Below, in pieces: positions 5,156 through 57,079 of a DNA stretch of 64,000 bases. A model generated the notes under the pieces. The model was not told where the DNA came from, ran no database searches, and saw only the letters and a list, made by a program, of their open reading frames with translations. The position numbers and the translations under genes were made by a program. Numbering within the stretch: the first letter of the stretch is position 1; each line of letters begins with the position of its first letter. The stretch covers positions 68,006,659 to 68,070,658 of the forward strand of contig CM049313.1 in NCBI GenBank assembly GCA_026874595.1, given 5' to 3'. Source of the DNA: Sipunculus nudus. Its lineage: Eukaryota > Annelida > Sipuncula > Golfingiida > Sipunculidae.

Positions 5156-6289
5156 TCAACAATGATCCAGGGGGGCCGTTTCTATAAGTAGCTTTTCAGA
5201 CAAGCAGAGATCACACTTCCGAGTCCCACAGAAGTAAGGTGCTGCCTTGGCAGATATTTCCCAGGAGAGCTTGTAATTGGTATTGTTGTCTTTTAGTGAC
5301 CAAATGTGTTTAGACAGTTCAGTATTTTTAGCGTTGGATCTGTTCCGAAAGGATTGCTTGTGGTTATTGTATCTTGTCTTGAAATCACCTTCAGTACACC
5401 CTATGTAGTGTTTCACGTCATTGTCTGTTCTAACTGGTTCCTTATAGACAATGCATTTCAGCTGACATTGACCATTCATAGGACATTCGTCTTTTTTACG
5501 GGAGTTACATTGTTTTTGAGGTACATTCACAGCATTGTCGGTATTTAAAACCTCCCTATTATGTTTGCTGATCAGGTTAGACATGTTGGGTAGACAGCTA
5601 TAGCTAATTTTCAAATTGTTCCTGTTGAATAACCTGTGGTACCTGTGATGTTGAGGGAAGTGTTTTTCAACTAGTTTCATGAATTGTCTGCCAATGTTGG
5701 TTTTTACATGACGGCTGTAGGGTGGATTAAACCATATTATTTTCCTTTTCCTGTTTCTTTTGCTTTTCACTGTGGGTTCAACATATTTTAAGCTTTCTGA
5801 GAACCCGCTTTTCGCTAAAGCTTTGTCATACATGGGTTTGGCTTTCATAAATAGCTCTTTATTGCAGGAGATGTCAGATACACGTTTGCTGATCATCATA
5901 GGTATCTGCCTAATGATAGCTGGGGGGTGATTGGATTGTGCGTGGATATAGAGCGGGTCATTGTTCGGTTTTCTGTAAGGGTAGAAGATGTCATTTTGGA
6001 GGTCAAATGTTACGTCTAAGAAATCTGTGCACGTCAGGTTAGTTTCAATGGTTATCTTTAACCCAACATTGGAAAAGAGTTTGATCATTTTCTTACGGGT
6101 GCTGTCTGCTTTGGGTCCAGACATGTTGGGGAAACAACCTAAACCGTCATCATGATACTGCAGGCCTAGAGCATTTTCACCAAATTCCTTTTTCAACATA
6201 TCTAGGATGTATAAACCAACAATTTCGCATACTTCAGCGCCATCAAAACTGCCCATGGTGACGTCAAAACTAGTATGATCTTTTTTCAC
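5156..6289 (-). CDS. Penelope-like retroelement: C-terminal RT plus GIY-YIG endonuclease
   Basis: An open minus-strand frame of 377 codons. Residues 8-30 (FDVTMGSFDGAEV onward) and the catalytic YHDD at 45-48 belong to the reverse transcriptase palm. Residues 67-135 contain the RT block FLDVTFDL, the YRKPNNDPLYI block and NHPPAIIRQIP, typical of Penelope-like RTs. A cysteine cluster (C261, C269, C275, C279) precedes the GIY-YIG nuclease, seen as HYIGCTEG with YIG at 295-297, R306 and E324. The first half of the GIY motif is degenerate (VKH). A CxC-type knuckle lies at 354-362. These proteins copy RNA at a cut made by the GIY-YIG domain in the nucleus. Full-length family members are longer: the frame is closed upstream by an in-frame TGA just before 6289, so the N-terminal RT motifs are missing. 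The frame has no natural ATG at its edge; the first in-frame ATG encodes M12. Strongest intact coding stretch in the window. Confidence 0.88.
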   Translation of the reverse strand: MKKDHTSFDVTMGSFDGAEVCEIVGLYILDMLKKEFGENALGLQYHDDGLGCFPNMSGPKADSTRKKMIKLFSNVGLKITIETNLTCTDFLDVTFDLQNDIFYPYRKPNNDPLYIHAQSNHPPAIIRQIPMMISKRVSDISCNKELFMKAKPMYDKALAKSGFSESLKYVEPTVKSKRNRKRKIIWFNPPYSRHVKTNIGRQFMKLVEKHFPQHHRYHRLFNRNNLKISYSCLPNMSNLISKHNREVLNTDNAVNVPQKQCNSRKKDECPMNGQCQLKCIVYKEPVRTDNDVKHYIGCTEGDFKTRYNNHKQSFRNRSNAKNTELSKHIWSLKDNNTNYKLSWEISAKAAPYFCGTRKCDLCLSEKLLIETAPLDHC

Positions 6290-20855: not shown

Positions 20856-21659
20856 CTGCAACCGTGCATAACTTTTATAGAATAAAGCAGCCTTAAAAAA
20901 ATCGATGCGTGGTTTTGGAAGGATACAGTATTTTTTATGGATTGAGCGTATGGAATAATGGTGGGCGTCTTAAGCCATAGCGCCCTTATCACACAGATAG
21001 GAAGAGGATTTGTCATCAGACCAATCTCTCTGAATTAATGTCTGACGTGAAGTTTGTGTCTAACAGCTACGATTTCTGCTTTGCTAAAGGATAATGTAAT
21101 TAACCAAAAAAAAATTAATATCACTATTATAAAAAAAATAATAAAGTTGAGATAATTATAGGTGGCGTCACAAGTTTCAATGTATCCTGAGGCAACCCAT
21201 CCGGCCATTCATAAGTAAATCTGGTTTCTTACATTGTTTCAACGTTAAACTAAAAAAATAATGGTCTCAGTGATTTCATTACCGAAATCAGCCATTCCCA
21301 AAAATATTTTTTTAGAATGCTAATATAGCGACATAATCAGTAGCAATATTATACCTGTTCTTTCTCAGTATCAGTTCAGTTATGTTTTATACAAATGTTT
21401 CCCAGCAAAAGAATCCCAGCACACAGTCTCAGTACCTCGCATACAGCTGTTTAACACCTTGTTATGGTTCTGCTTGTTGTTAAACACTGTCCACGTGTGT
21501 CTCTTAACCATAAAATGGTCGCGTGACAGGAGGTCCGAAAATGAGCCGCGGTGTTTCGGAAAGAGGGAACATGTTTTACATTTTTGGGCCAAGTCAGTAA
21601 GGCATCTCCTGATTGACACGTGTTGTGGCACCGCGAATAGCATTTATATCTGCAGCCGA

Positions 21660-23450
21660 TATGTGTATGTAGGTGGCGCCTACTGCCATAAAATCGAGAA
21701 AGTTATCAAAGATATATAAACATGCAAATTTTTAGGCAGATCATTCAAACCACTACTGAGATATGAGTGATTTTAGCCCACGGCAGACAAACAGACGGAC
21801 GCTATGCAAAAATGGTTGCAGGTGGCGCCTCCAGTTTTGTGTATGATGTTAAAGATGTCTCTTTTGTTGTATGCAGCGGTCTTACATTTGTGTGTGCAGC
21901 ACTAGCAATGGCCGTTGCTATGGCGGCATAGCCCGGCCCACGCGTGGAGTCTGACGTGTAAACAGCGGTCATGCTAGTTTGGGGATTTCTCGCCTGGCCG
22001 AGCCGAGCCGGCCCACGTATGAACCCTGATATGTAGAAAAACACCGTTCTTTGTTCTAGATGTTTCCTGTAACGTGTGTACTATTTGGTTCTTTGGACTG
22101 TTCGAGAATTGGAAAGTTCTCGGCTTTAGGTGAAAAGTTTAAAATAGGGGGCTTTGTTTTAGAGCAGGTAGAGAGGAGAGAAATATTTCAGCGGACACAG
22201 AAGAATGTGAGTCAGTTTGTGGACCTTTTCCGATAATTGCGGCAGTTATAGATTTTCTTCGAATTAGTAACGCATTTTATATAGTCTTCAGTTTGCCTAT
22301 GGGATCACTTCCAGGATTTCACTTTTGGATTACAACAAATTGATTTTGTGATTGAACTGGACTGTTATTCTCTGAGAAGGTTTATGTGAACTGTTCATCT
22401 GGATTATATGCTTTAAAGGACTTTTTGTCGCTGTGACAGTGGTGGTATCCAGGTACTGTATACTTTATTTATATACTTGCATTGATTTACTCTTGTACTG
22501 TTGTTATACTGTGTAATTGTATTGATTTAGTGTATTGTAACGTTAGGCTTGTTTTAAGAATAAATTATAATTATTTGTTAACAAAAAAACACTGACTTCT
22601 TTATTCATTCCCCTAGACTTTTCACGCTGCCTAATGTTACAGAATCTGATTTTTTTTCTCCATTACAAAATTTATATTCGTCACGACTACGTGATCTGTT
22701 GATATTAGGTTCCGCAACAATGATAAAGAGCTGAATGAATGTGAGATCTATACACATGCAAAATTTCAGGAGGATACAGCAAACCAATCCTGAGATATAA
22801 GCCTGGATGCCTGCAGCGTAAACATGAATATAGGTGGCGCTTTGTGAGATCTATACACATGCAAAATTTTTGCCCTGTCGGTCAAACGGTTCCCGGGATA
22901 TAAGCTTGAATGTCTGCAGCGTAAACGTAAATGTAGGTGGCGCCACCTGTCATAAAATCAAGAAAGCTGTCCAGGATGTATAAACCTCAAAATTTCAGGT
23001 GGATAAGTCAAACCACTGCCGAGATATGAGTGATTTTATCTCAAGGCAGATGAACAGGTGGACGCTGTGCAAAAACGGCTGCAGGTGGCGCCACCAGTTT
23101 TGCGTATGAAGAAGAGCTAAGTGAGACCTTTACACATGCAACATTTTGGCCCAACCGGTCAAACGGTTCCGGAGATATAAGCTTGGATGTCTGCAGCGCA
23201 AACGGGAATGTAGGTGGCGCCACCTGTCATAAAATCAAGATTAGTCAATGGATAAGTCCAACCAATGCAGAGATATGAGTGATTTTATCCTATTGCAGAT
23301 GAACAGATGGACGCTGTGGAAAAATGGTGGCAGGTGGCGCCACTATTTTAGTGTATGTTATAAAGCTATCAAAGGGCTACATTTGTGCAAAATGTTTAGC
23401 CTGATCGGTCAAACGGTTCCCGAGATATGTGGGTTTATGTGTGGAAACAG
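21660..23450. repeat. Dimeric tandem repeat (aggtggcgc family), split by a solo LTR
   Basis: Alternating half-units of about 120-145 bp each begin with aggtggcgc (near 21670, 21828, 22835, 22937, 23085, 23213, 23332). One half type carries cacatgcaaaattt, a ggtcaaacggttcc block, gatataagctt and gtctgcagcg. The other carries gtcataaaatcaag, ggataagtc-aaacca, gagatatgagtgatttta and cagatgaacag-ggacgctgtg. The two half types are themselves related. About three full dimers remain. The solo LTR at 21847-22719 interrupts a unit cleanly. Confidence 0.85.
21847..22719 (+). mobile_element. Solo LTR of Gmr1-like family with 4-bp TSD
   Basis: It begins TGTTAAAGATGTCTC and ends TTCCGCAACA, so it has the TG...CA termini of an LTR. 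It matches the LTRs of the element at 49957-57071 throughout (ccggcccac block, ttctcggct block, cactgacttctttattcattcccctagac block, gatctgttgatattaggttcc terminus). It is flanked by ATGA on both sides (21843-21846 and 22720-22723). Joining the flanks restores a unit of the surrounding tandem repeat, so the insertion and the later LTR-LTR recombination were precise. At 873 bp it is the best guide to the complete LTR. Confidence 0.9.
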
Positions 23451-40437: not shown

Positions 40438-42655
40438 TGCGTCAATCGTGCAAACTAACAAACTTGAACAGACAAGATAGTTTTTCATTGAATTTAGGAA
40501 TTTGGAAACATATGGAACTGTTGCTTAGTTTCTGTTATTCATATTCTCCATATTTTAACTGAACTTCATAAGATATGTAGGCCTACTTCCGCTTCGAATC
40601 CGTGCAACGCTAAGATAAAGTTTACACCATATTCTGCGCATGCGTCTCAAAGCCGTCAGAAGTCAACTTTTGACAATGACTAATTTATCCTATCCCCTTT
40701 ACTTTTTGAGTGATTCTTTGATTTCAAGACACTTCATCGGTAAAAATAATTTGTATTGGAAAATCGAGGAATTCATCATACGAATATTACAACTCGAAAT
40801 ATATCACTGCATATATTTCATATCTTGATACCATATGTATCCCGATCTGGCTATTCAACTGATTGCAAGTGATATGTCATTATACTCCGAAATATGATTT
40901 TGGAAAATAATTGACCTATCCATGAACTCTATCGCATATTCATTCAATGAATAATCATGAGCAGAGCAGTTGCGAGTAACCAATCAAGTTACCGTTGGCA
41001 AAGTAAATGCTCAATCACCCCACAAGTGCAAAATTTGCATATTTTGAATGACTATCCCAAACAGAACACGTGTAGCCTGCACAAATACCTGTGTCCGCAT
41101 GTTAACCGGAATATTTTTTAAACAAAGGTGACAGCTGCATAATGCCCTTTGCAAAGCTCAAGTTCGTCTGATTTGATAATGTTTTTGTTGAGTTAAATAC
41201 TTGTAACCAAGGTAACTTGTAAAAGTAATTGTAATCGTAATCAATGGCATTGATATTTTCATGTAATCATAATCCTGATTGTGATCGCACATTTTGAAAG
41301 TACTCGTAATGGTAATTGATAACATTTAAAATGTTTTGGCCCCAACCCCGGTGTATTTGGCTTATTTTGGTGGGCCCTTTAATAACATGGTATGATGAAA
41401 CAACCTTGACTTCGAAAGCAATTCGATATAAAACAGCCAACGCATTGAGCTTCCCCCTTGTAAATAATATACCCTAATTCCCCAGTAGTATTGTATATGA
41501 TTTATTGGTTGGAAAATGAATATAGATGAGGTCATACTACTGCATAAAAGGTGCACAGTAGTGTTGATGGATGCAACGTAGAACCTTAACATTGTGGAAA
41601 CGGCTGGTAGTACGCTGAGTGCTACTTGTAACCTAGTCAATATTTGAAGGGCTTTTAGGAACTCAAGGGTAAGTGTCATTTTACTCGGACGCGCGGTTCT
41701 AAATGCTCTGGCGTATGACGGGTCGTGCAAAATTTATGACTGATGAACCTCGGGTATAAAAATCGACTCAGAAATCAGTCTAATATTACCTCTTGGGAGC
41801 CTTAACGTGATTTATTTTGAGCCTTCACTATTCAGATACTACCCCCCCCCCTTCAGTAATTACGATAAATAATCAACTTCCGCACATATGCAATCAACCA
41901 CCTTACGGTATAGGATTCTTCTGTTTCTCAAATCATCTTCAAGTCAAAATGAAACAACATATACCATGATATATAAATACTATAAACTTTATTTTACATG
42001 GATTGTACAAATTTTCAAGCTGACACTCTCAATGGCCCCGGTAGAAGCGTTCGGTGGAAGGTAGAGGAAGCTGGAGATCCCTGATAAAACCACCGGTCAT
42101 GGACTGGCCACTCAAAACATATTCTCAAAGCCACGCCGGATATCGAACCCTTCAGGTACACCAGCTAGGAGAGCCGAGAGTTTTACACGAAAAGATTGCC
42201 AAGGTTGATTTCAAAGCTCTCGGACAAAACATCTGTCATTAATGGCAGTATATATGTGATATCTGAGTTCGGAAATATTGAGGGCAGTAAAAGGACGCAT
42301 CAATGTTTAATTCCTCAGAAAACTGAAATAATAAACATTATTTTGAGTTTCCGTCTTTTGTTTCATGTGGATACTTGAAAATTCAAACTTACTGCTCTTT
42401 GCCTAAGAATTAGCGTGCATTTGCAAATTTAATAAAAAGGAAGCACTGTCCCCCTGTATTCATTTTCTACTCTTGTCTCAAAAGAATGCCAATTAGTCCT
42501 ACTACTATGCAAAACCCAATAAAGCATATATCATTTTAAACCTTGTTTAATTATTTATCTGATAAATTATAAAACATTTGTATTTGTACAAAACTAATCA
42601 TTCCCCGCCCATCGTAGCAATTTTCAGTAGGGCCAGTACATGAATATCCCCAGGC
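40136..42655. repeat. Segmental duplication copy A
   Basis: Homologous to 44322-49957 in the same orientation. Matching landmarks include kkafdslrr (40195 / 44380), tctcaaagccgtcagaagtcaa (40645 / 46733), attcattcaatgaataatcatgagca (40940 / 47247), aaacagaacacgtgtag (41055 / 47343), gatggatgcaacgtagaa with cattgtggaaacggctggtagtacgctgagtgctac (41565-41625 / 48575-48640), ggtagaagcgttcggtggaaggtagagg (42040 / 49397) and cccgcccatcgtagcaattttcagtagggccagtacatga (42605 / 49918). Copy A lacks about 1.9 kb after the LINE piece, about 0.7 kb near 41110-41215 and about 350 bp near 41768 that copy B has. Identity in the blocks is roughly 80-90 per cent by eye. Confidence 0.88.
41215..41350 (-). repeat. 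hAT-like terminal region (copy A)
   Basis: A run of AATCGTAATCAAT/GTAATTGTAATC words ends in a degraded CCCCAACCCCG at 41350, aligned with the better CGCCCAACCCTG end of copy B at 48366. Arrays of TGTAATTAC-type words next to CAGGGTTGGGC are typical ends of some hAT elements. No opposite terminus was found. Confidence 0.4.
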
Positions 42656-45753: not shown

Positions 45754-45975
45754 TTTACAGGTGTCTCTTTTATTGTGCACTGTTGACATTCTGATTCGTG
45801 TAAAGCAGGCCCTGGTTTATTGTGCGCAAGAGTCTTGCATGTGTCTATAAGGCAAGCATAGTCCGTTGCCATTGGATACGCGCCAGCCGGGCCGGCCCGC
45901 ATGTGTTGTCTGAACTCCGTAACAAAATTTATGCTCGTCACGACTACGCGATCTGTTCTTATTAAGTTCCGTTAC
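45754..45975 (+). repeat. Internally deleted LTR relic of Gmr1-like family
   Basis: It starts tttacaggtgtctcttttattgtgc and carries gcgcaagagtcttgcatgtgtct and ccgggccggcccgcatgtgttgtct, matching the LTR 5' part. It then jumps at about 45915 to the LTR 3' terminus (aacaaaatttatgctcgtcacgactacgcgatctg... aagttccgtta). About 0.5 kb of the LTR is missing. Just upstream, cgggctcgtcc (45731-45741) matches the primer-binding-site word of the full element, so an internal piece of the element may have preceded this LTR. Confidence 0.7.
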
Positions 45976-48366: not shown

Positions 48367-49956
48367 GTGAATTTGGCTTGTTTTGGTGGGCCCCTTTAAT
48401 TACATGGTATGATGAAACGACCTTGACTTCGAAAGCAAGTCGATATACAAAGGTCAACTTACTGAGCTTCCCCTTGAACATAATGTCTCTATTTACCGTA
48501 TGGTATTTGTACATGATTTATTGGCTGGAAAATGAATACAGGTCATACTACTGCATTAAAGGTGCACAGTAGTGTTGATGGATGCAACGTAGAAACTTAA
48601 CATTGTGGAAACGGCTGGTAGTACGCTGAGTGCTACTTGTAACCTAGTGAATATTTAAACTGTATGTTACAGGGCTTTTAGGAACGCAAGGGTAAGTGTC
48701 ATTTTACTCGGACGCTCGATGGTCTGGCCTCCGACGGGACGTGCAACATTTATGGTTGTTGAGCCGCGGGGATAAAAATTGGCTCTTGTATTAGTCAGTG
48801 ACCATTGCCGACCATTCCAAAACATAGTCAATTTTGTAGACACTGTGCTGACAACTATAAACCTTAGATTTCACCAAAGTGATGTAATTATATAATGCAT
48901 ATAGTGACGCAATATCTAACCATGAAATGATACGAAAATGACATTAAATAAAACATAACCAATTTTACACTGTCCTTGAAAATTTGACAACTGTCACCTC
49001 TCATACCTATAAACTATCACCTGTCAATCCTGTAAAAATATACTTTATAATGCATTTCAGGGGATAGAAATAAAAGTCTGGATTACAAAATTTAAATCTT
49101 TAGCTGAAGTTATCTCTTCTTGATTATATGAAATCAGTCTAATATTTCCTCTGGGGAGCCTTAACGTGATTTATACTGAGCCTTCACTGTTCAGATACTC
49201 CCTCCCCCCTTTAGTAATTACGATAATCAATCAACTTCCGCACGTGTGCGATCAACCATCTTACGGTATATGATTCTTCTGTTTCTCAAGTCATCTTCAA
49301 GTCAAAATGAAGCAATATATACCATGAAATATAAATACTATAAACTTTATTTTACATGGATTATACAAATATTCAAACTAACACTCTCCATGGCCCAGGT
49401 AGAAGCGTTCGGTGGAAGGTAGAGGAAACTGGAGATCCCTGATAAAACCACCGGACTTGAACTGGCCACTCAAAATATTCTCAAAGCCACGCCGGATATC
49501 GAACCCTTCAAACCCCAAAAACTGCATAGATGGATTCGAAGCTCCCAAACAAAACATCTATCATTATTGGCAGTATATGTTGTTCGGATATAGGGCAGTA
49601 AGATGAATGCATCAACGTTTACACCCTCAGACGACTGACATAATAAACATTATCTTAAGTTACTGTCTTTTGTTTCATGCGGATGTATAAAAATTCAAAC
49701 TTACTGCTTTTTCCCTTTAAGAATGAACGTGCATCTTCAAAATTGACAAAAAGGAAGCACTGTCCCCTGCATTCATTTTGTATTCTTGTCTCAAAAGAAT
49801 GCCAATAAGTCCTACCACTTCCAAGCAAAACCCCATAAAGTATATATCATTTTAAACCTTATTTAATTATTTATCTGATAATTTATAAAACATGTTTTTG
49901 TACAAAATTAATCAATCCCCGCCCATCGTAGCAATTTTCAGTAGGGCCAGTACATG

Positions 49957-50651
49957 ATTCGGTAACACTAGGCAGCGTGAAATGTCTAGGGAAATGAATA
50001 AAGAAGTCAGTAGTTTTTTGTTAACAAATGATTATAATTTATTCTTAAGACATCCCTAACTTTACAATACACTCAATCAATACAATTACACAGTATAAAA
50101 CAGTATAACAGTAAATCAATACAATTACACAGTATAATAAATAAAGTGTACAGTACCAGATGGAGTGTCCGGATACTAGGCTTTTCTAGATCCCACCAAT
50201 GTCCAGCTCAGTAAGTCCTTAAAAACTAATAATCCACGTAAACAGTTAAAAAAGTCTCTTATTATAATCCCGAAGGCAAACTGGAGACAGTCCCACTGAA
50301 TCTGCATAGAGTTCAAAGAATCCCTGACACTACTGCAATTATTGGATAGATCCAAAACTGACTCACACTGTTCCGTGTAAGCTGGAATTTTTCTCCTCTC
50401 CTTGGCTCTAAACATAGCCCAATATTCATAACTTTTTATCCAAAAATTCTAGAAATGGTAAACTCCATAGAACAATCTACATGTTAGAGGAACACACTTG
50501 AGACATCTAGAACAAAGAACGATGGGTTTCTACACGTCAGACCCCACTAGTGGGCCGGACCAACCTGCACGTCTCCAATTCGTTGAACTATGCTTGCGCT
50601 ACACAGACACATGCAAGACTCCTGCGCACAATAAAAGAGACACCTGTAACA
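49957..50651 (-). repeat. Downstream (3') LTR, last part missing
   Basis: It starts at 50651 with TGTTACAGGTGTCTC (minus strand) directly after the polypurine tract and runs to GTTACCGAA at about 49957. Compared with the complete solo LTR at 21847-22719, about 80 terminal bases are missing (the gacaaaatttatgttcgtcacgactacgtgatctgtt block). It abuts segmental copy B. Confidence 0.88.
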
Positions 50652-50664
50652 CTCCCCCTCCTGT
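50652..50664 (-). other. Polypurine tract
   Basis: Minus strand ACAGGAGGGGGAG lies immediately before the TG of the downstream LTR. This is the expected position and composition of the primer for plus-strand DNA synthesis in an LTR retrotransposon. Confidence 0.85.
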
Positions 50665-50759
50665 AGGAAAAAAAGTTTTCTCAAACAAACTTTCTTTTTG
50701 CGATCTCAATCACTAAATTGTTACAATATTTCAAAAATCATCTTATTTACAACATTTCA

Positions 50760-53400
50760 TAAACATCTCATTTCATAAACATCTCAATAAGCATCCAGCA
50801 AGAACATTGTCTTTCCCTTTAATGTGTCTGATTTTAAGATTGTAAACCTGTAAAAACAAACTCCTTCTCAACTACCTTGATTTTTTACTTTAACTTGTTC
50901 ATGGACGTGAGGGGAATGTGATCATTGAAGACAATGATAGGCCTGACTGATGAAGTAACATAAACTTCAAAATATTGCAATGCCAAAATCAAAGCCAAAC
51001 ATTCTTTTTCTATAGTGGAGTATTTTTTCTGGTTTGCATTAAACGTTCTTGAAAAATTGGACGATCTATGCCATCATTGCCTTCTTGTAACAACACAGTA
51101 CCAGCAGCAGTATCACAAGCATCTACAGCTAACTTTTAAGGTACAGAAAAGTCTGGAGCTGCTTAAACTGGCGTACTTTCCAGAATTACTTTCAAATTCT
51201 GAAATGCAGTTTCACACTGAACATTCCATACAAACTTTTGTTTCTCCTTTAACAAATTAGTCAATGATTCAGCTACAGCAGAAAAATTTAGACAAAACTG
51301 TCTGTGGTTTCCAACCATACCAAGAAAAAGCATTTTTTGGCTTTTTGTTCTCTGGTCTAGGATATGCAGAAATAGCACTTATTTTAGCATAAACAGGTTT
51401 TACTTGACCCAGCCCTACAGTATGACCCAAAAATGTTACTTGTGCATGACAAAACTCTGATTTGACTAAGTTGATGGTCAGACGTGCTTCGCTGAGTCTT
51501 TCGAAGAGGTCTCGAAGAATTTGCAGATATTTCTCCCAGGTGTCGCTCTACACGGTGAGGTCATCAATATATTCGTCGCAGCCCTGAATGTCCTTGACAA
51601 CCATATGGATGAGGCGCTGGAGCGTGGCTGGCGAGTTCTTCCTGCCAAGCGGCATAACTTTATACTGGTACAGTCCTTGCGGCGTCACAAATGCGGACAC
51701 TTCTTTCGCTCGTTCTGTCTGCGTAACTTGCCAGAATCTTTTTAGCAAGTCAAACTTGGAGACATATCTGAAGCTACCGACTCTATCAATACAATCATCG
51801 ATCCTCGGAATCGGGAACGTGTCAGTCTTGGTGACAGAGTTCAGTTTTCGATATTCCGTGCACATAAGGTAATGTCCATCAGGTTTTGGCACAAGAAAAC
51901 TTGGTGAACTCCAGCTCCTATCCCATGGTTCAATAAAGTCATTGTCCATCAAATATTGAACCTCATCGTGTAGATCCTTTTGCTTTGGTGGATTCAGTCT
52001 ATCAGGATTCTGCTTGACTGCGCTTGACGTCATGGCACGATATGTTGGTTCGCGTTGGAATGTCACTAAATAAATGTTCATATTTCCGCAGCAGATTCTT
52101 GAGGTCTTGTTGTTGTTGTGCGGTAAGGAGTGACACTTTGGCATCCAGGTTTTTAAGCACGTCTGAGTTTTTTAATGGTACTGTACCACACTGAATGTCT
52201 ACATCACACTTACAATCAGTATCTACTTTAACTGGGTCAGGGTCAGTTTTTACACAATCAGCAGCAGTAACATTATATACAACATCTGATGAGCTGTTTC
52301 TGTCATAATATGGTTTGAACATGTTAACATGGCACAGCTGTTTTTTCTTACGCCTATCTGGTGTCAACAGTATGTAATTTAAATCACTGACTTTCTTGCC
52401 AACAATGTAAGGACCAAAATATTTAGCATTCAGAGGTCTGCCAGGGATGGGAAGTAAGGCAAGGACCTTTTCACCATGATCAAACGTCCTACTTACAGTG
52501 AGATTATCATACTTTGTTTTCATTTTACTTTGTGCAGATTTTAGATTAGACTTTGCAATCTCACAAGCTTAATGTAGTTTAGTGCGAAAGTCTGAGACAT
52601 ACTGCAATAAACTAAGAGACTCGGGATATTCACAAAAGTGGTTTTCTTTAAGCAGTTTTAATGGTCCTCGAACTGAGTGTCCAAAAACTAGTTCAAAGGG
52701 ACTGAAACCCATGGAATCTTGAAATGATTCTCTGACAGCAACGAGCAATAGGTGGATTCCTTCATCCCAGTCTCTTTGCGTGTCATAGAAATAGGTCCTG
52801 ATCCTGTTTTCTTAACGTCTGGTGAAAACGCTCGAGGGCGCCCTGAATTTCAGGATGGTATGGCAAAGATCTGTACTGTTTTATACCTAGCTCAAGCATA
52901 ACTTGCTGGAATAAGCCAGACGTAAAATTAGACCCTTGGTCAGACTGGACAGATTTTGGTAATCCAAAAGTTGTAAAAAACCAGGTCAGAGCCTTGACAA
53001 TACTTTTGGCATTGATTTTGCGCAATGGTATTGCCTCAGAGAACCTGATAGATAGGCACATAATTGTCAGCAAGTATTCATGTCTAGATTTTGTTTTGGG
53101 CAGGGGTCCAACACCATCAACAATAATCCTACTAAATGGTTCGTCGAAAGCAGGAATAGGCCAAAGTGGGGCTTTAGGAGGATTCTAATTGGGCTTGTCT
53201 ACCATCTGCCATGTAAGGTATGATTTACAATGTTGTACAACATCAGTTCTGAGGTAAGGCAAGTAGAAGTGTGTACTAACTTCCTGATAAGTTTTATTTA
53301 TACCTAAATGGCAAGACAAAGGAGCCTCATGTGCCATGCTTAGAATGCCATTGCGATGATGTTTGGGCAACACTATTTGATGTTTAATGGCCAACTCATC
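50760..53400 (-). pseudogene. pol: Gmr1-like pol: integrase, reverse transcriptase, RNase H
   Basis: Minus-strand domains in order. Integrase N-terminus is at 53394-53185, with the two histidines in AHEAPLSCHLG kept but two of the usual cysteines lost. The integrase catalytic core is at about 53180-52783: first Asp in IIVDGVGPLPKTKS, second in SDQGSNFTSG, Glu in GALERFHQTLR. The integrase C-terminal module follows at 52523-52330 (LLPIPGRPLNAKYFGPY, CHVNMFKPYY). Then come a linker (DLKNLLRKYEHLFSDIP) and RT at 52144-51548, with FLVPKPDGHYLMCTEYRKLN, FDLLKRFWQV (catalytic Asp) and YIDD near 51555. RT thumb and connection lie at 51500-51163, then RNase H with LKLAVDACDTAAG near 51110 and a terminal KGKDNVL-type block near 50800. 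Frames shift between 52783 and 52523, between 52144 and 52002, and after YIDD (stop). Pol would copy and integrate the element; this copy cannot make a full protein. Confidence 0.9.
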
Positions 53401-53689
53401 ATCAGCGCATACATCAGGTGGTCGCTATTCACGCATAAGCACTTCATTTTTAACATAGAAACAAACTGGGTTCATCTTTAGAAACTGCCCTGTGAAAAAA
53501 AAAATGAAACAACAGGGTCCTTATGCTGTTCCGCGATAAGTTCTGACCTTAAAAATGCTGCATCCTGTACGGGCGAGTCGTTAGACGAATAACTAGTGAC
53601 TCCCAGAGTGTTATTATCTGGACCATTATCCTCGTGTGTTTTTCTTGGCCATAGATCTTGTTAAAGACCTGGAATTTCCTGACTTTCCG

Positions 53690-53800
53690 ACTCAGTGCCC
53701 TGATCAAGTCACGGCTTTTCTGTCACCATTGGTACAGTCTGTACTTCTTCACCTGCAACATCATTGCCTAGAAGCAACTGAATTCCCTGAAGGGTAAAGT
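53690..53800 (-). pseudogene. Protease-region relic
   Basis: Between gag and integrase the minus strand reads GIQLLLGNDVAGEEV (about 53790-53745). This matches the conserved LLLGNDLAG block found in the protease region of this retrotransposon group. The flanking frame is broken by stops, and an Asp-Thr/Ser-Gly active site was not located with confidence. Confidence 0.5.
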
Positions 53801-53899
53801 AGTTCTTATGCCCACACTAATATTCCCAGAAATCAAAGAGCTTGGCTCTTGTACTATGCTATGCATATATTTTGAAACAAAACTTTTTGGATTATTTGC

Positions 53900-54697
53900 A
53901 AGTATCCAGCAGTCAGGTATTACATGACCTTCCTTTTTGCTGTAATTACAGCAACAGGACTTTGTTAAAACTATCAGGACTGCTAGTACTTGGTGACTCT
54001 GCTTTAAACTTCTTTTGACGGTACCGTTTTACAGTCTTGTTTGTGAATGGCTGGTTTGATTTGCTAGTAATTTTCCCAATTTCTGAATTTCTGGCGGTAA
54101 GCCTCTGGAACTAACTCATAACCTTTTAGGATTAACAGTTAAACCTAGTCATAGCCACCAGCCGCTTCTACTGAAAGCTCTGTATAAATTTCTCTGGCCT
54201 TGCCAGCCAATACACTTCGTAATAGCATAGTCCAATTTACCTTAGGCCATTTTAAATTTCCAGCTACCTTTTCAAAGTCTAAGAACTATTTATCAACCTC
54301 TTTTTCTTGAAAAGGTGGGGACAAGTCTAATGTGTTTAGTAACATTCAAACTGTGAGTTAGACCATGTTCTAGTTTAAATCTTTCTGATTCTGGTCGTTT
54401 TTCACTCAATTTCTTTTTCTTTGTCTTTCTCTTTTAATGCTAGCTCATGTTGCATTTCTAACTTTTTCTAATTCTAACTGTATAGCACGGCTGTCATTTT
54501 TTTATGTTTCCACTTTACTCTCTTAAATTAAACCTTTGCTGAGTAGATCTTGCATGATTTTAGCAATTATATCAGGCTTTCTCAAAGCTAGTTTCGCACT
54601 TAGCCCTAATTGTTGTCCCAAACGCAACAATTGATCTGTTGTCGAGTTCATAAGGGTCTGGATCTTCAACAAATGCCCCAGGTTTGAAATCTGCCAT
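53900..54697 (-). pseudogene. gag: Gag relic with SCAN-like capsid domain
   Basis: An ATG at 54697 opens MADFKPGAFVEDPDP. After a frameshift, LRKPDIIAKIMQDL follows (54600-54540). The capsid part at 54300-54075 reads WPKVNWTMLLRSVLAGKA, then YTELS and finally LVPEAYRQKF (54082-54112), a signature shared with the vertebrate SCAN domain. Three in-frame stops interrupt it (one near 54287 and two near 54145-54155). A degraded CCHC zinc knuckle (CCCNYSKKEGHVIPDC, one Cys changed) lies near 53960-53915. The SCAN domain is held to descend from the gag of Gmr1-like elements, which agrees with the pol order here. Confidence 0.78.
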
Positions 54698-54842
54698 GTT
54701 AAGATGTTAAAACAATAACAAAAAAACCACTGAGATAAATCTTGTAAACAATGTATCATAAACAATATGTAACCTGTAAACAATGTATAGTAAACTGTGT
54801 GTCTAGGTCAAGGCCTAATAAATTTTCAAAACTATTAAGGCT

Positions 54843-54862
54843 CCCGGACGAGCCCACAATTT
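54843..54862 (-). other. Primer-binding site, tRNA-Pro-like
   Basis: Minus strand TTGTGGGCTCGTCCGGGAG follows the upstream LTR. It is close to the tRNA-Pro primer site TGGGGGCTCGTCCGGGAT known from other LTR retroelements. The exact LTR/PBS boundary is uncertain by a few bases. Confidence 0.7.
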
Positions 54863-55576
54863 TATTTTACGGAACCTAATAACAACAGATCACGTAGTCG
54901 TGACGAACATAAACTATGTTATGGAGATAAAAAAAATTAGATTCGGTAACACTAGGCAGCGTGAAATGTCTATGGGAAGGAATAAAGAAGGCAGTGGTTT
55001 TTTGTTAACAAATAATTATAATTTATTCTTTAAACTTAACTTGACAATACACTAAGTCAATACAATTACACAGTATACAAACAGTATAACAGTAAATCAA
55101 TACAATTACACAGTATAATGAATAAAGTGTACAGTACCAGATCGAATGTCCGGATTCTAGGCTTTTCGGATACCACAACAGTCACAGCTCAATAAGTCCT
55201 TTTTAAACTAATAATCCACGTAAACAGTTCAAATAGTCCAAAGTAAAGCTCTTGTAATAATCCCTAATGCCAACTTGAGACAGTCCCACTAAATATGCAT
55301 ACAGTACGTAGTATCCTGACACCACTGCTATTATCGGATAGGTCCAAAACTGTCTCACACTCTTCCGTGTCCGCTGGAATCTTTCTCTCTCCTCTCCTTG
55401 GTTCTAAACACAGCCACTATTTATAACTTTTTATCCGAAAATTCTACACGTTACAGGAACACACTCGAAACATCTAGAACAATGAACGTTGTGTTTCTAA
55501 ACGCCAGACCGCATTTGTGGGCCGGGCCAACTCGCACGTCTCCCATGGCACCGAACTATGCTTGTGCTACACAGAC

Positions 55577-57032
55577 ACATATATGTACATTTTTTTTTTT
55601 TTTTTTTGACGTCTCAGACTGGTTTAAGTTGTCACATGTATTATATTTCATCATCGACGTCGAGTTTTATTGGAAAAGGTGACGCTTAATTGATTACATA
55701 GACAGAACAAGAATAAGGATGTAGATAAGTATATACTGTGATAATTTGTAAAGTATATACTGTGATATGTTTTAAGTAAATATATAAGTAACTTGTTCAT
55801 TTGTGACACAAAATTCTAATTTGTACCAAGGTAAGACAAAACTTGATAAATAAAACAGTATTAATCAATTAAAAAGGCTGTCAACATGCGCTATAGTAAC
55901 ATGCATTGAAAGCGTACACATACCTTTACATACATATACAAAACAAATATATACATACATATATACACATCAATAAACATGTATTTCCTGCTTATTCATT
56001 AGTATCATAAGTTCGAAAATATTTTTCCACAGATCATTTCAATTTTGTTGTTACATCAATTTCTGGAGTAGGTATTGTCTAGAAGTATCTGATCGGTATC
56101 AAATTGATCTTCACTTTTTGTATTAATTCCATTATAGAGGGGTTTCAATCGCTCATTAAATATTTTTTCATCTGCTGTATTGTAAAGAGCTACCTTAATA
56201 CAGTTTAATTCAGAACGTATTTGACAAAGGAAAATACTAAACAAAATTTCTTTTTCAGAACATTTTTGTCTGTGTATAAACATTTTAGCTTGTAATATAA
56301 AAAAATTCAGAATATCAGCATGAGTCGATTTCGTTTTATCGTTAGACCCAAACAGGATTGTGTCGAGTGATAATGAAAGTTTTGTTTTATCATATTTTTC
56401 CCATAATCGTTCACATTTATTCCAAAATGAGTTCAATTTCGGACATAAGAAGAATCTGTGTTCAATGGTGTCAACATTCGTTTTGCAGTAGTCACATATA
56501 CTATTTTCTACAAGTTTCATATGGTGAAGTCTCTCCTTGTACGGAATTTTTTTATGCATAAATCTAAAGTGAAAATCTTGTGTTTTAATACTACTCACAT
56601 ATCTCAGTGGTTCGCTTATAAATATATTAAATTGTTCAAGACTGATATTGTAGTTTTGTTTCCAGTAAGCAAAAGCTGTTGGTTCTTCGTATTTCGTTTT
56701 TATCAATATATTATAAATATGTTTACATTTATTTGATTTGTTTTTAATTTCTCTGCTGTCTTGACCATCTAGTGTTATAGGTCTTTGGGTTAATAACTGA
56801 CTTCTCCAATGTTTTGGTATTGCATTAGTTATACCATAATATTCAATAAAATTTATATTTATCTTAAACTTCTGTTTTAACTCTTCCATTGATAAGATGG
56901 CTCCATTCATGATCAAGTCTCTGACACGCAGAATCCCTGCTTTGTACCAATGTTTATAAAATATGCCTTTTGTACCATTATCTGTTGTTATAAATGTATT
57001 ATACCAGATTATCTCTGTACATATATGTACAT
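55577..57032 (-). mobile_element. L1/Tx1-type LINE nested in LTR, 5'-truncated, 14-bp TSD
   Basis: A perfect 14-bp direct repeat ACATATATGTACAT lies at 55577-55590 and 57019-57032. Between them is a minus-strand LINE of 1428 bp that ends in a 17-base poly-A (T run 55591-55607). The other LTR reads acacagacacatgcaagac without interruption at this point. Direct repeats, a poly-A tail and 5' truncation are the marks of target-primed reverse transcription. Confidence 0.93.
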
Positions 57033-57063
57033 GCAAGACTCCTGCGCACAATATAAGAGACAC
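56056..57063 (-). CDS. C-terminal part of L1/Tx1-type LINE ORF2
   Basis: A minus-strand open frame of 335 codons. The first residues (MSLILCAGVLHVHI) are read from the LTR and are not part of the LINE, which begins near 57018. The rest matches the region after the RT of L1/Tx1-like ORF2 proteins: FRFMHKKIPYKERLHHM (residues 167-183), then a CCHC motif C190-x2-C193-x8-H202-x4-C207 in SICDYCKTNVDTIEHRFFLC, then a W-rich segment (WNKCERLWEKY). The RT and endonuclease domains are absent because of 5' truncation, so it cannot move on its own. The open frame suggests a fairly recent insertion compared with the host LTR element. Confidence 0.85.
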   Translation of the reverse strand: MSLILCAGVLHVHICTEIIWYNTFITTDNGTKGIFYKHWYKAGILRVRDLIMNGAILSMEELKQKFKININFIEYYGITNAIPKHWRSQLLTQRPITLDGQDSREIKNKSNKCKHIYNILIKTKYEEPTAFAYWKQNYNISLEQFNIFISEPLRYVSSIKTQDFHFRFMHKKIPYKERLHHMKLVENSICDYCKTNVDTIEHRFFLCPKLNSFWNKCERLWEKYDKTKLSLSLDTILFGSNDKTKSTHADILNFFILQAKMFIHRQKCSEKEILFSIFLCQIRSELNCIKVALYNTADEKIFNERLKPLYNGINTKSEDQFDTDQILLDNTYSRN

Positions 57064-57079
57064 CTGTCACAAAATACTC

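What the first reader, a model, noticed from the sequence alone, without database searches (positions are those of the whole stretch)
50652..54862. Ty3/gypsy element with integrase before RT and a SCAN-like gag (Gmr1 group)
Seen: on the minus strand the integrase modules (zinc-binding, DDE core, C-terminal) precede the reverse transcriptase (YIDD) and RNase H, and the gag relic has LVPEAYRQKF. Known: this pol order within Ty3/gypsy defines Gmr1-like elements, whose gag is the proposed source of the vertebrate SCAN domain. Inference: this genome carries such a lineage, with further LTRs at 1-626, 21847-22719 and 45754-45975, so it was active and multiplied.
Basis: partly seen in the sequence, partly recalled or inferred. 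Interest (0 to 1): 0.72.

Follow-up and report, generated by a model that had tools for sequence, protein, structure and literature searches.

The report
Worm retrotransposon with SCAN-type capsid
This is a decayed copy of an old, multiplied retrotransposon family in a peanut worm that carries its integrase before its reverse transcriptase and a capsid of the type that became the vertebrate SCAN domain; it is a new member of a known group, found here in an unexpected kind of animal.

Summary
On the minus strand the integrase modules precede RT and RNase H. The given coordinates are the internal region; the element spans 49956-57071, its 5' LTR split by a LINE fragment. It is no chimera: 27 of 30 loci keep the order cleanly, and one unmodified copy reads from integrase C-terminus through the YIDD RT in one open frame. 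The window's gag relic cannot itself prove a SCAN-like capsid, because most of SCAN and the protease are deleted, but sister copies do: 13 of 13 chosen gag pieces match Pfam SCAN, best 5.8e-15, and all 150 scored SCAN hits of this genome, out of 2,198 first-look candidates, pass the curated cut-off. Chromosome lengths identify the host as Sipunculus nudus, a sipunculan annelid. Gmr1-like elements were already reported from crustaceans and one annelid, so this is a new member of a known kind. The useful point is that SCAN-type gag occurs, apparently at high copy number, in a protostome. Grouping with Gmr1 in RT and INT trees could not be tested: no Gmr1 sequence was available.

The parts
57029..57071 (-). 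first 43 bp of the 5' LTR, cut off from the rest by a LINE insertion
   Evidence: 95% identical to 50609-50651, the start of the 3' LTR (family D8)
55581..57028 (-). LINE 3' fragment inserted in the 5' LTR (not part of the element)
   Evidence: zf-RVT PF13966 3.1e-8 in ORF 56059-57066; poly(A) run ending near 55590; TGTACATATATG on both sides
54865..55580 (-). rest of the 5' LTR
   Evidence: 81% over 676 alignment columns to the 3' LTR; LTR end placed by comparison with sister copies whose LTRs end GTAACA
54841..54858 (-). primer binding site, tRNA-Pro-like
   Evidence: TGTGGGCTCGTCCGGGAG; a related motif (up to 3 edits allowed) follows the LTR end in 15 of 20 sister copies; the tRNA name is recalled, not from a call
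54074..54697 (-). gag relic from a likely ATG to just after LVPEAYRQKF, with stops and frameshifts
   Evidence: sequence; deletion after ~54071 against sister copies
53768..54028 (-). gag C-terminal relic with a CCHC-like knuckle, then a remnant of the protease region without DTG
   Evidence: ORF, no meaningful Pfam match; knuckle and DTG in sister copies
53185..53424 (-). integrase zinc-binding domain (H2C2)
   Evidence: PF17921 9.9e-14
52783..53184 (-). integrase catalytic core
   Evidence: PF00665 1.6e-11
52002..52568 (-). integrase C-terminal region, running into the linker before RT
   Evidence: PF22938 5.2e-9
51548..52171 (-). reverse transcriptase, YIDD
   Evidence: PF00078 1e-15
51269..51547 (-). 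end of the reverse transcriptase domain
   Evidence: PF00078 1.4e-4, below the curated cut-off
50885..51073 (-). RNase H relic
   Evidence: PF17917 1.1e-12
50652..50662 (-). polypurine tract AGGAGGGGGAG next to the 3' LTR
   Evidence: sequence
49956..50651 (-). 3' LTR, begins TGTTAC, lacks about the last 75 bp

Best explanation
A decayed copy of a Gmr1-like Ty3/gypsy LTR retrotransposon family of Sipunculus nudus. Shown: order LTR - PBS - gag (capsid ending in a SCAN-type domain, then a CCHC knuckle) - protease DTG - integrase - RT - RNase H - polypurine tract - LTR, pieced from the window and separate sister copies. Inferred from established LTR-retrotransposon biology: the LTR promoter makes a full-length RNA; a gag-pol chain is made and cut by the protease; capsid units assemble through the SCAN-type C-terminal domain; a tRNA (proline-like site) primes cDNA synthesis; the integrase, cut from the middle instead of the end of the chain, inserts the cDNA. 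The window copy lost most of SCAN and the protease motif, carries stops, and its 5' LTR was later hit by a LINE, so it is very probably dead.
For: Domain order in the window; same order cleanly in 27 of 30 loci, 21 of them with all five domains; one open frame of 565 aa from the integrase C-terminal part through YIDD in L007 and one of 480 aa from SCAN through CCHC to DTG in L042. RT nearest in the PDB to Ty3 RT, 7.7e-72; integrase nearest to PFV integrase 1.4e-19, with Ty3 at 7.5e-16. SCAN: 5.9e-14 and 2e-13 in L032 and L048, 13 of 13 pieces at E up to 1, best 5.8e-15, 150 of 150 scored genome hits over the cut-off and 0 of 14 control genomes. Best PDB profile match is the SCAN domain of human ZNF24, weak at 0.13 but over the SCAN stretch. 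PBS in 15 of 20 copies.
Against: No Gmr1 sequence was available, so the defining tree was not built. The single-sequence PDB search with gag found no chain at 0.01. Three of 30 loci did not show the order cleanly: L002 without RT hit, L010 with a domain on the other strand, L025 with overlapping hits. No Pfam family matched the one protease piece tried, so the protease rests on its DTG motif and position; the zinc knuckles also stayed below Pfam's cut-off (0.003-0.27). Of the five pieces, L034 (its frame ends soon after SCAN begins) and the protease piece had no SCAN match, and L043, which holds half of SCAN, scored 0.011, below the cut-off.
Confidence: 0.9

Rival explanations
1. A chimera: an integrase-bearing fragment of one element nested next to the RT of another, so that the order is an accident of this site.
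For: Nested insertion does occur here: a LINE fragment sits in the 5' LTR.
Against: The order recurs cleanly in 27 of 30 loci on many chromosomes (three of these, L015, L016 and L021, are near-identical local duplicates), and L007 has the integrase C-terminal part and RT in one open frame.
Confidence: 0.02
2. A Ty3/gypsy lineage unrelated to Gmr1 that moved its integrase upstream independently.
For: No tree with Gmr1 references could be built; Gypsy diversity in related phyla is large (PMC6238403 lists 21 mollusc clades, section 6 read).
Against: The gag matches Pfam SCAN, a domain that a frog survey found in over half of Gmr elements and only there (passage of PMC4131045). Two independent characters agree.
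Confidence: 0.08
3. The SCAN match reflects only the general capsid fold, so the gag says nothing about Gmr1.
For: The SCAN fold is the general CA fold (passage of PMC6525542); the profile match to a solved SCAN chain is weak (0.13); other gag-like models are touched weakly, DUF1759 in 6 of 13 pieces (best 0.0015) and Ty3_capsid in 2 of 13 (0.0089).
Against: The SCAN model wins by a wide margin (best 5.8e-15, 55 bits for the member shown against a cut-off of 27) and covers model positions 1 to 87 or 88 of 90. In the tables that show cut-offs no other gag family reaches its own (first member).
Confidence: 0.1
4. A Ty1/copia element, which normally has integrase before RT.
For: The domain order alone.
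Against: RT matches Ty3 RT at 7.7e-72; the next rows are 8r0s 'Enzymatic polyprotein' and retroviral pol chains, none of them named Ty1 or copia in the 60 rows shown of 202. Integrase matches PFV and Ty3 and Integrase_p58_C.
Confidence: 0.01

Closest known systems
Gmr1-like elements of vertebrates and tunicates (Gmr1 clade, Ty3/gypsy)
   Same: Integrase upstream of RT (stated in passages of PMC6238403 and PMC2774666); SCAN in gag (passage of PMC4131045); gag and pol given as one chain in pufferfish Gmr1 to Gmr4 (table passage of PMC11117352)
   Different: Protostome host; LTR about 750 bp against 337-518 bp in those pufferfish families; the copies examined here are decayed
LGF3 of the annelid Lamellibrachia luymesi
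   Same: Annelid host; placed in the Gmr1 clade by RH, RT and INT trees in PMC8220671 (passages)
   Different: Fewer than 25 elements there; a search of the text for 'SCAN' gave no SCAN domain
GyRex4, Gychoro2, GyMaja1, GyLiva4 of crustaceans
   Different: Other hosts; GyRex4 known from its RT/RH part only
Vertebrate SCAN domain
   Same: Same Pfam family, match over model positions 1-88 of 90; best PDB profile match is human ZNF24 at 0.13
   Different: Here it is a capsid part of a mobile element, without a C2H2 motif within 1.5 kb in any of the 30 loci looked at

Membership tests
Ty3/gypsy (Metaviridae) | RT of the Ty3 type | tested here: met
   Ty3 RT 7.7e-72, 245.6 bits; best other chain not labelled Ty3 or of that entry 151.1 bits (query from L015)
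Ty3/gypsy (Metaviridae) | two LTRs, PBS, polypurine tract, gag with zinc knuckle | tested here: met
   knuckle by motif, below Pfam's cut-off
Gmr1 clade | integrase upstream of RT within one pol | tested here: met
   (27 of 30 clean)
Gmr1 clade | capsid with SCAN-type C-terminal domain | tested here: met
   sister copies. Not met in the window copy itself, which lost it
Gmr1 clade | RT and INT group with Gmr1 in trees | not testable with these tools
   No Gmr1 or other named Gypsy reference sequence was at hand; scans of viral contigs and genome contigs, each with only two short peptide patterns, found no relative
Gmr1 clade | gag and pol in one reading frame | tested here: inconclusive
   Single frames cover SCAN to DTG (L042), protease to H2C2 (L002) and integrase C-terminal part to RT (L007) in different copies; the pieces were deliberately not joined
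SCAN zinc-finger host genes | SCAN followed by C2H2 array | tested here: not met
   0 of 30 top SCAN loci have a C2H2 motif within 1.5 kb; 27 of 30 have the CCHC and/or DTG of the element. The other candidates were not looked at

The most novel reading that the evidence does not exclude
The SCAN-type capsid is an ancestral trait of Gmr1-like elements that predates the protostome-deuterostome split, so the raw material of the vertebrate SCAN domain was present in retroelements long before tetrapods adopted it; the alternative with the same interest is horizontal transfer of a SCAN-bearing element between phyla.
Probability: 0.6. Interest if true: 0.5.

Novelty: new member of a known kind. Interest (0 to 1): 0.38.

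Why it matters
SCAN is usually told as a vertebrate story: one review says the SCAN gene family is vertebrate specific and derived from a Gmr1-like gag (passage of PMC3424704). A protostome genome with 2,198 first-look SCAN candidates gives an outgroup for dating that capsid type and for asking whether any other lineage adopted it. It may also warn annotators: 'SCAN domain' genes reported as expanded or enriched in giant clam and oyster (passages of PMC11700175 and PMC10546077) could be gag of such elements; the giant-clam authors themselves ascribe theirs to transposable elements.

Tried and rejected
Nested chimera and Ty1/copia membership were tested and rejected. A look for host SCAN zinc-finger genes among the 30 best SCAN loci gave none; weaker ones among the 2,198 candidates are not excluded. 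Scans of viral contigs and of genome contigs for relatives of the RT gave none; with two short peptide patterns each they are not sensitive. Rfam and tRNA scans of the window were empty. Seven other window ORFs gave one Pfam match, the LINE. Other Ty3/gypsy families of this genome, wanted as tree references and as a control for pol order, were asked for by PF17921 seven times without an answer, so that control is missing. Host tests by hemocyanin (PF14830) and COX1 (PF00115) did not complete; the host was then named from chromosome lengths in a paper. Structure prediction was not used, because its stated rule does not list loci from whole genomes.
Full report
What is there. The minus strand of 49956-57071 holds one LTR retrotransposon copy. 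The 3' LTR begins TGTTAC at 50651 next to a polypurine tract and lacks its last ~75 bp at 49956. The 5' LTR ends near 54865, with six bases between it and a proline-tRNA-like primer site (tRNA name recalled). Its first 43 bp lie at 57029-57071, because a LINE 3' fragment with a poly(A) run and a repeat of at least 12 bp on both sides sits in it.

The copy is old and very probably dead. It is in pieces by stops and frameshifts. Against 20 sister copies, 13 show a loss of 239-242 nt in SCAN, 13 a loss of 67-80 nt near the knuckle and 13 a loss of 628-669 nt with the protease motif; the sets of 13 differ. L038, L039, L044 and L045 align only further downstream; L034, L037, L040, L043, L047 and L049 give other sizes at one or two of the three places (for example 154 nt in L043 and 304 nt in L049), some through their own deletions. 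The window's LTRs differ by K2P 0.147 over 623 sites. No rate is at hand, so no date is given.

The order is a family trait. A 1.2-kb integrase query gave 44 matches, 40 of 1,793 first-look candidates being scored. Of 30 loci taken (the window copy included), 27 show H2C2, core, C-terminus, RT in this order on one strand, 21 of them with RNase H too; L002 had no RT hit, L010 a domain on the other strand, L025 overlapping hits. The C-terminus and RT query pieces overlap by 170 bp of DNA in different frames, which explains small overlaps. L007, unmodified, has the integrase C-terminal part and YIDD RT in one open frame. Three of the 30, on C12, are 98.8-100% alike, hence local duplicates. The median identity over all 435 pairs, these included, is 92.9%, and outside these three no pair exceeds 95.6%, which speaks for an old expansion. 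The 30 were picked as nearest to the window copy, so younger branches may have been missed.

Gag. Thirteen pieces chosen for length from the 30 SCAN loci all match at E up to 1, best 5.8e-15. Genome-wide, all 150 scored SCAN hits pass the cut-off, out of 2,198 first-look candidates, with none in 14 control genomes. Of the best 30, 26 have no stop inside the SCAN stretch, 18 have a CCHC motif about 460 nt after the start of SCAN, 22 a DTG motif further on, 27 at least one of these, and none a C2H2 motif in 1.5 kb on either side. A single-sequence PDB search found nothing at 0.01; a profile found human ZNF24 SCAN first, at 0.13.

Type of pol. RT is nearest to Ty3 RT (7.7e-72), integrase to PFV (1.4e-19) and Ty3 (7.5e-16). 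So pol is Ty3/gypsy by sequence and Ty1/copia-like in order, as in the Gmr1 clade.

Host. The genome has 17 chromosome-sized contigs (C17 61.1 Mb; C18 52.5 kb) and 1,426,538,692 bases. Table 3 of PMC10212961 (abstract and passages) gives scaffold lengths for Sipunculus nudus. Of eight that I could compare, five are identical to the base (C2, C8, C10, C12, C16) and three (C3, C5, C6) differ by 6 to 9 kb; the totals differ by 0.24 Mb. The host is therefore taken as S. nudus, in Annelida, Sipuncula; no gene-based test of the host was answered. That paper gives Gypsy 6.87% of the genome and holds neither 'Gmr1' nor 'SCAN domain' (counts).

What was known. Gmr1 elements with this order: stated in passages of PMC6238403 and PMC2774666. 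First protostome cases in crustaceans: PMC3587641 (passages). One annelid: PMC8220671 (passages), of a clade that the polychaete survey PMC8556966 did not find in its own analysis (passages). The mollusc survey lists 21 Gypsy clades, none called Gmr1, though one is Cigr-1 (section 6 read). SCAN in frog Gmr elements: PMC4131045 (passages). The source paper on SCAN (Emerson and Thomas 2011) is not held and is known to me from citing passages and recall. I saw no paper that joins SCAN with Sipuncula or reports SCAN in an annelid Gmr1 element in the listings of searches. They cover open-licence papers only, and five of the seven listings are capped (40 of 2,193, 40 of 53, 25 of 507, 20 of 33, 15 of 69); 78 and 79 are complete.

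Verdict. The finding is right in substance. It is a new member of a known clade in a new host class, with the added and useful fact that its capsid is SCAN-type and apparently abundant in a protostome.

Noticed in passing
window 55581-57028: A LINE 3' fragment (zf-RVT 3.1e-8) with poly(A) inserted into the 5' LTR, with TGTACATATATG repeated on both sides; a relative-age marker for the element.
   Followed up: yes
L031-L050 (5' ends of sister copies): Two kinds of primer site follow the LTR: TGGGGGCTCGTCCGGGA (tRNA-Pro-like) and TGGGGGCTCTCGTCGGGA, which suggests subfamilies with different tRNA primers.
   Followed up: partly
G000 C16 59.91-60.01 Mb and C12 40.05-40.31 Mb: Four integrase matches of 86% identity to the query spaced about 32-33 kb, each with a second partial match about 190 bp away, and three copies 98.8-100% alike to each other: local duplications carrying the element.
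   Followed up: no
window 5159-6289, minus strand: A 377-aa ORF that looks like the end of a Penelope-like element (RT plus GIY-YIG-like end, recalled); no Pfam match at 0.01.
   Followed up: partly
window 41365-42577 and 48382-49893: Several direct repeats about 7.0-7.4 kb apart, 83-97% alike, pointing to a duplicated block just beside the element.
   Followed up: no
window 21639-23358: Interleaved direct repeats of 93-125 nt around an LTR relic, tandem-like.
   Followed up: no
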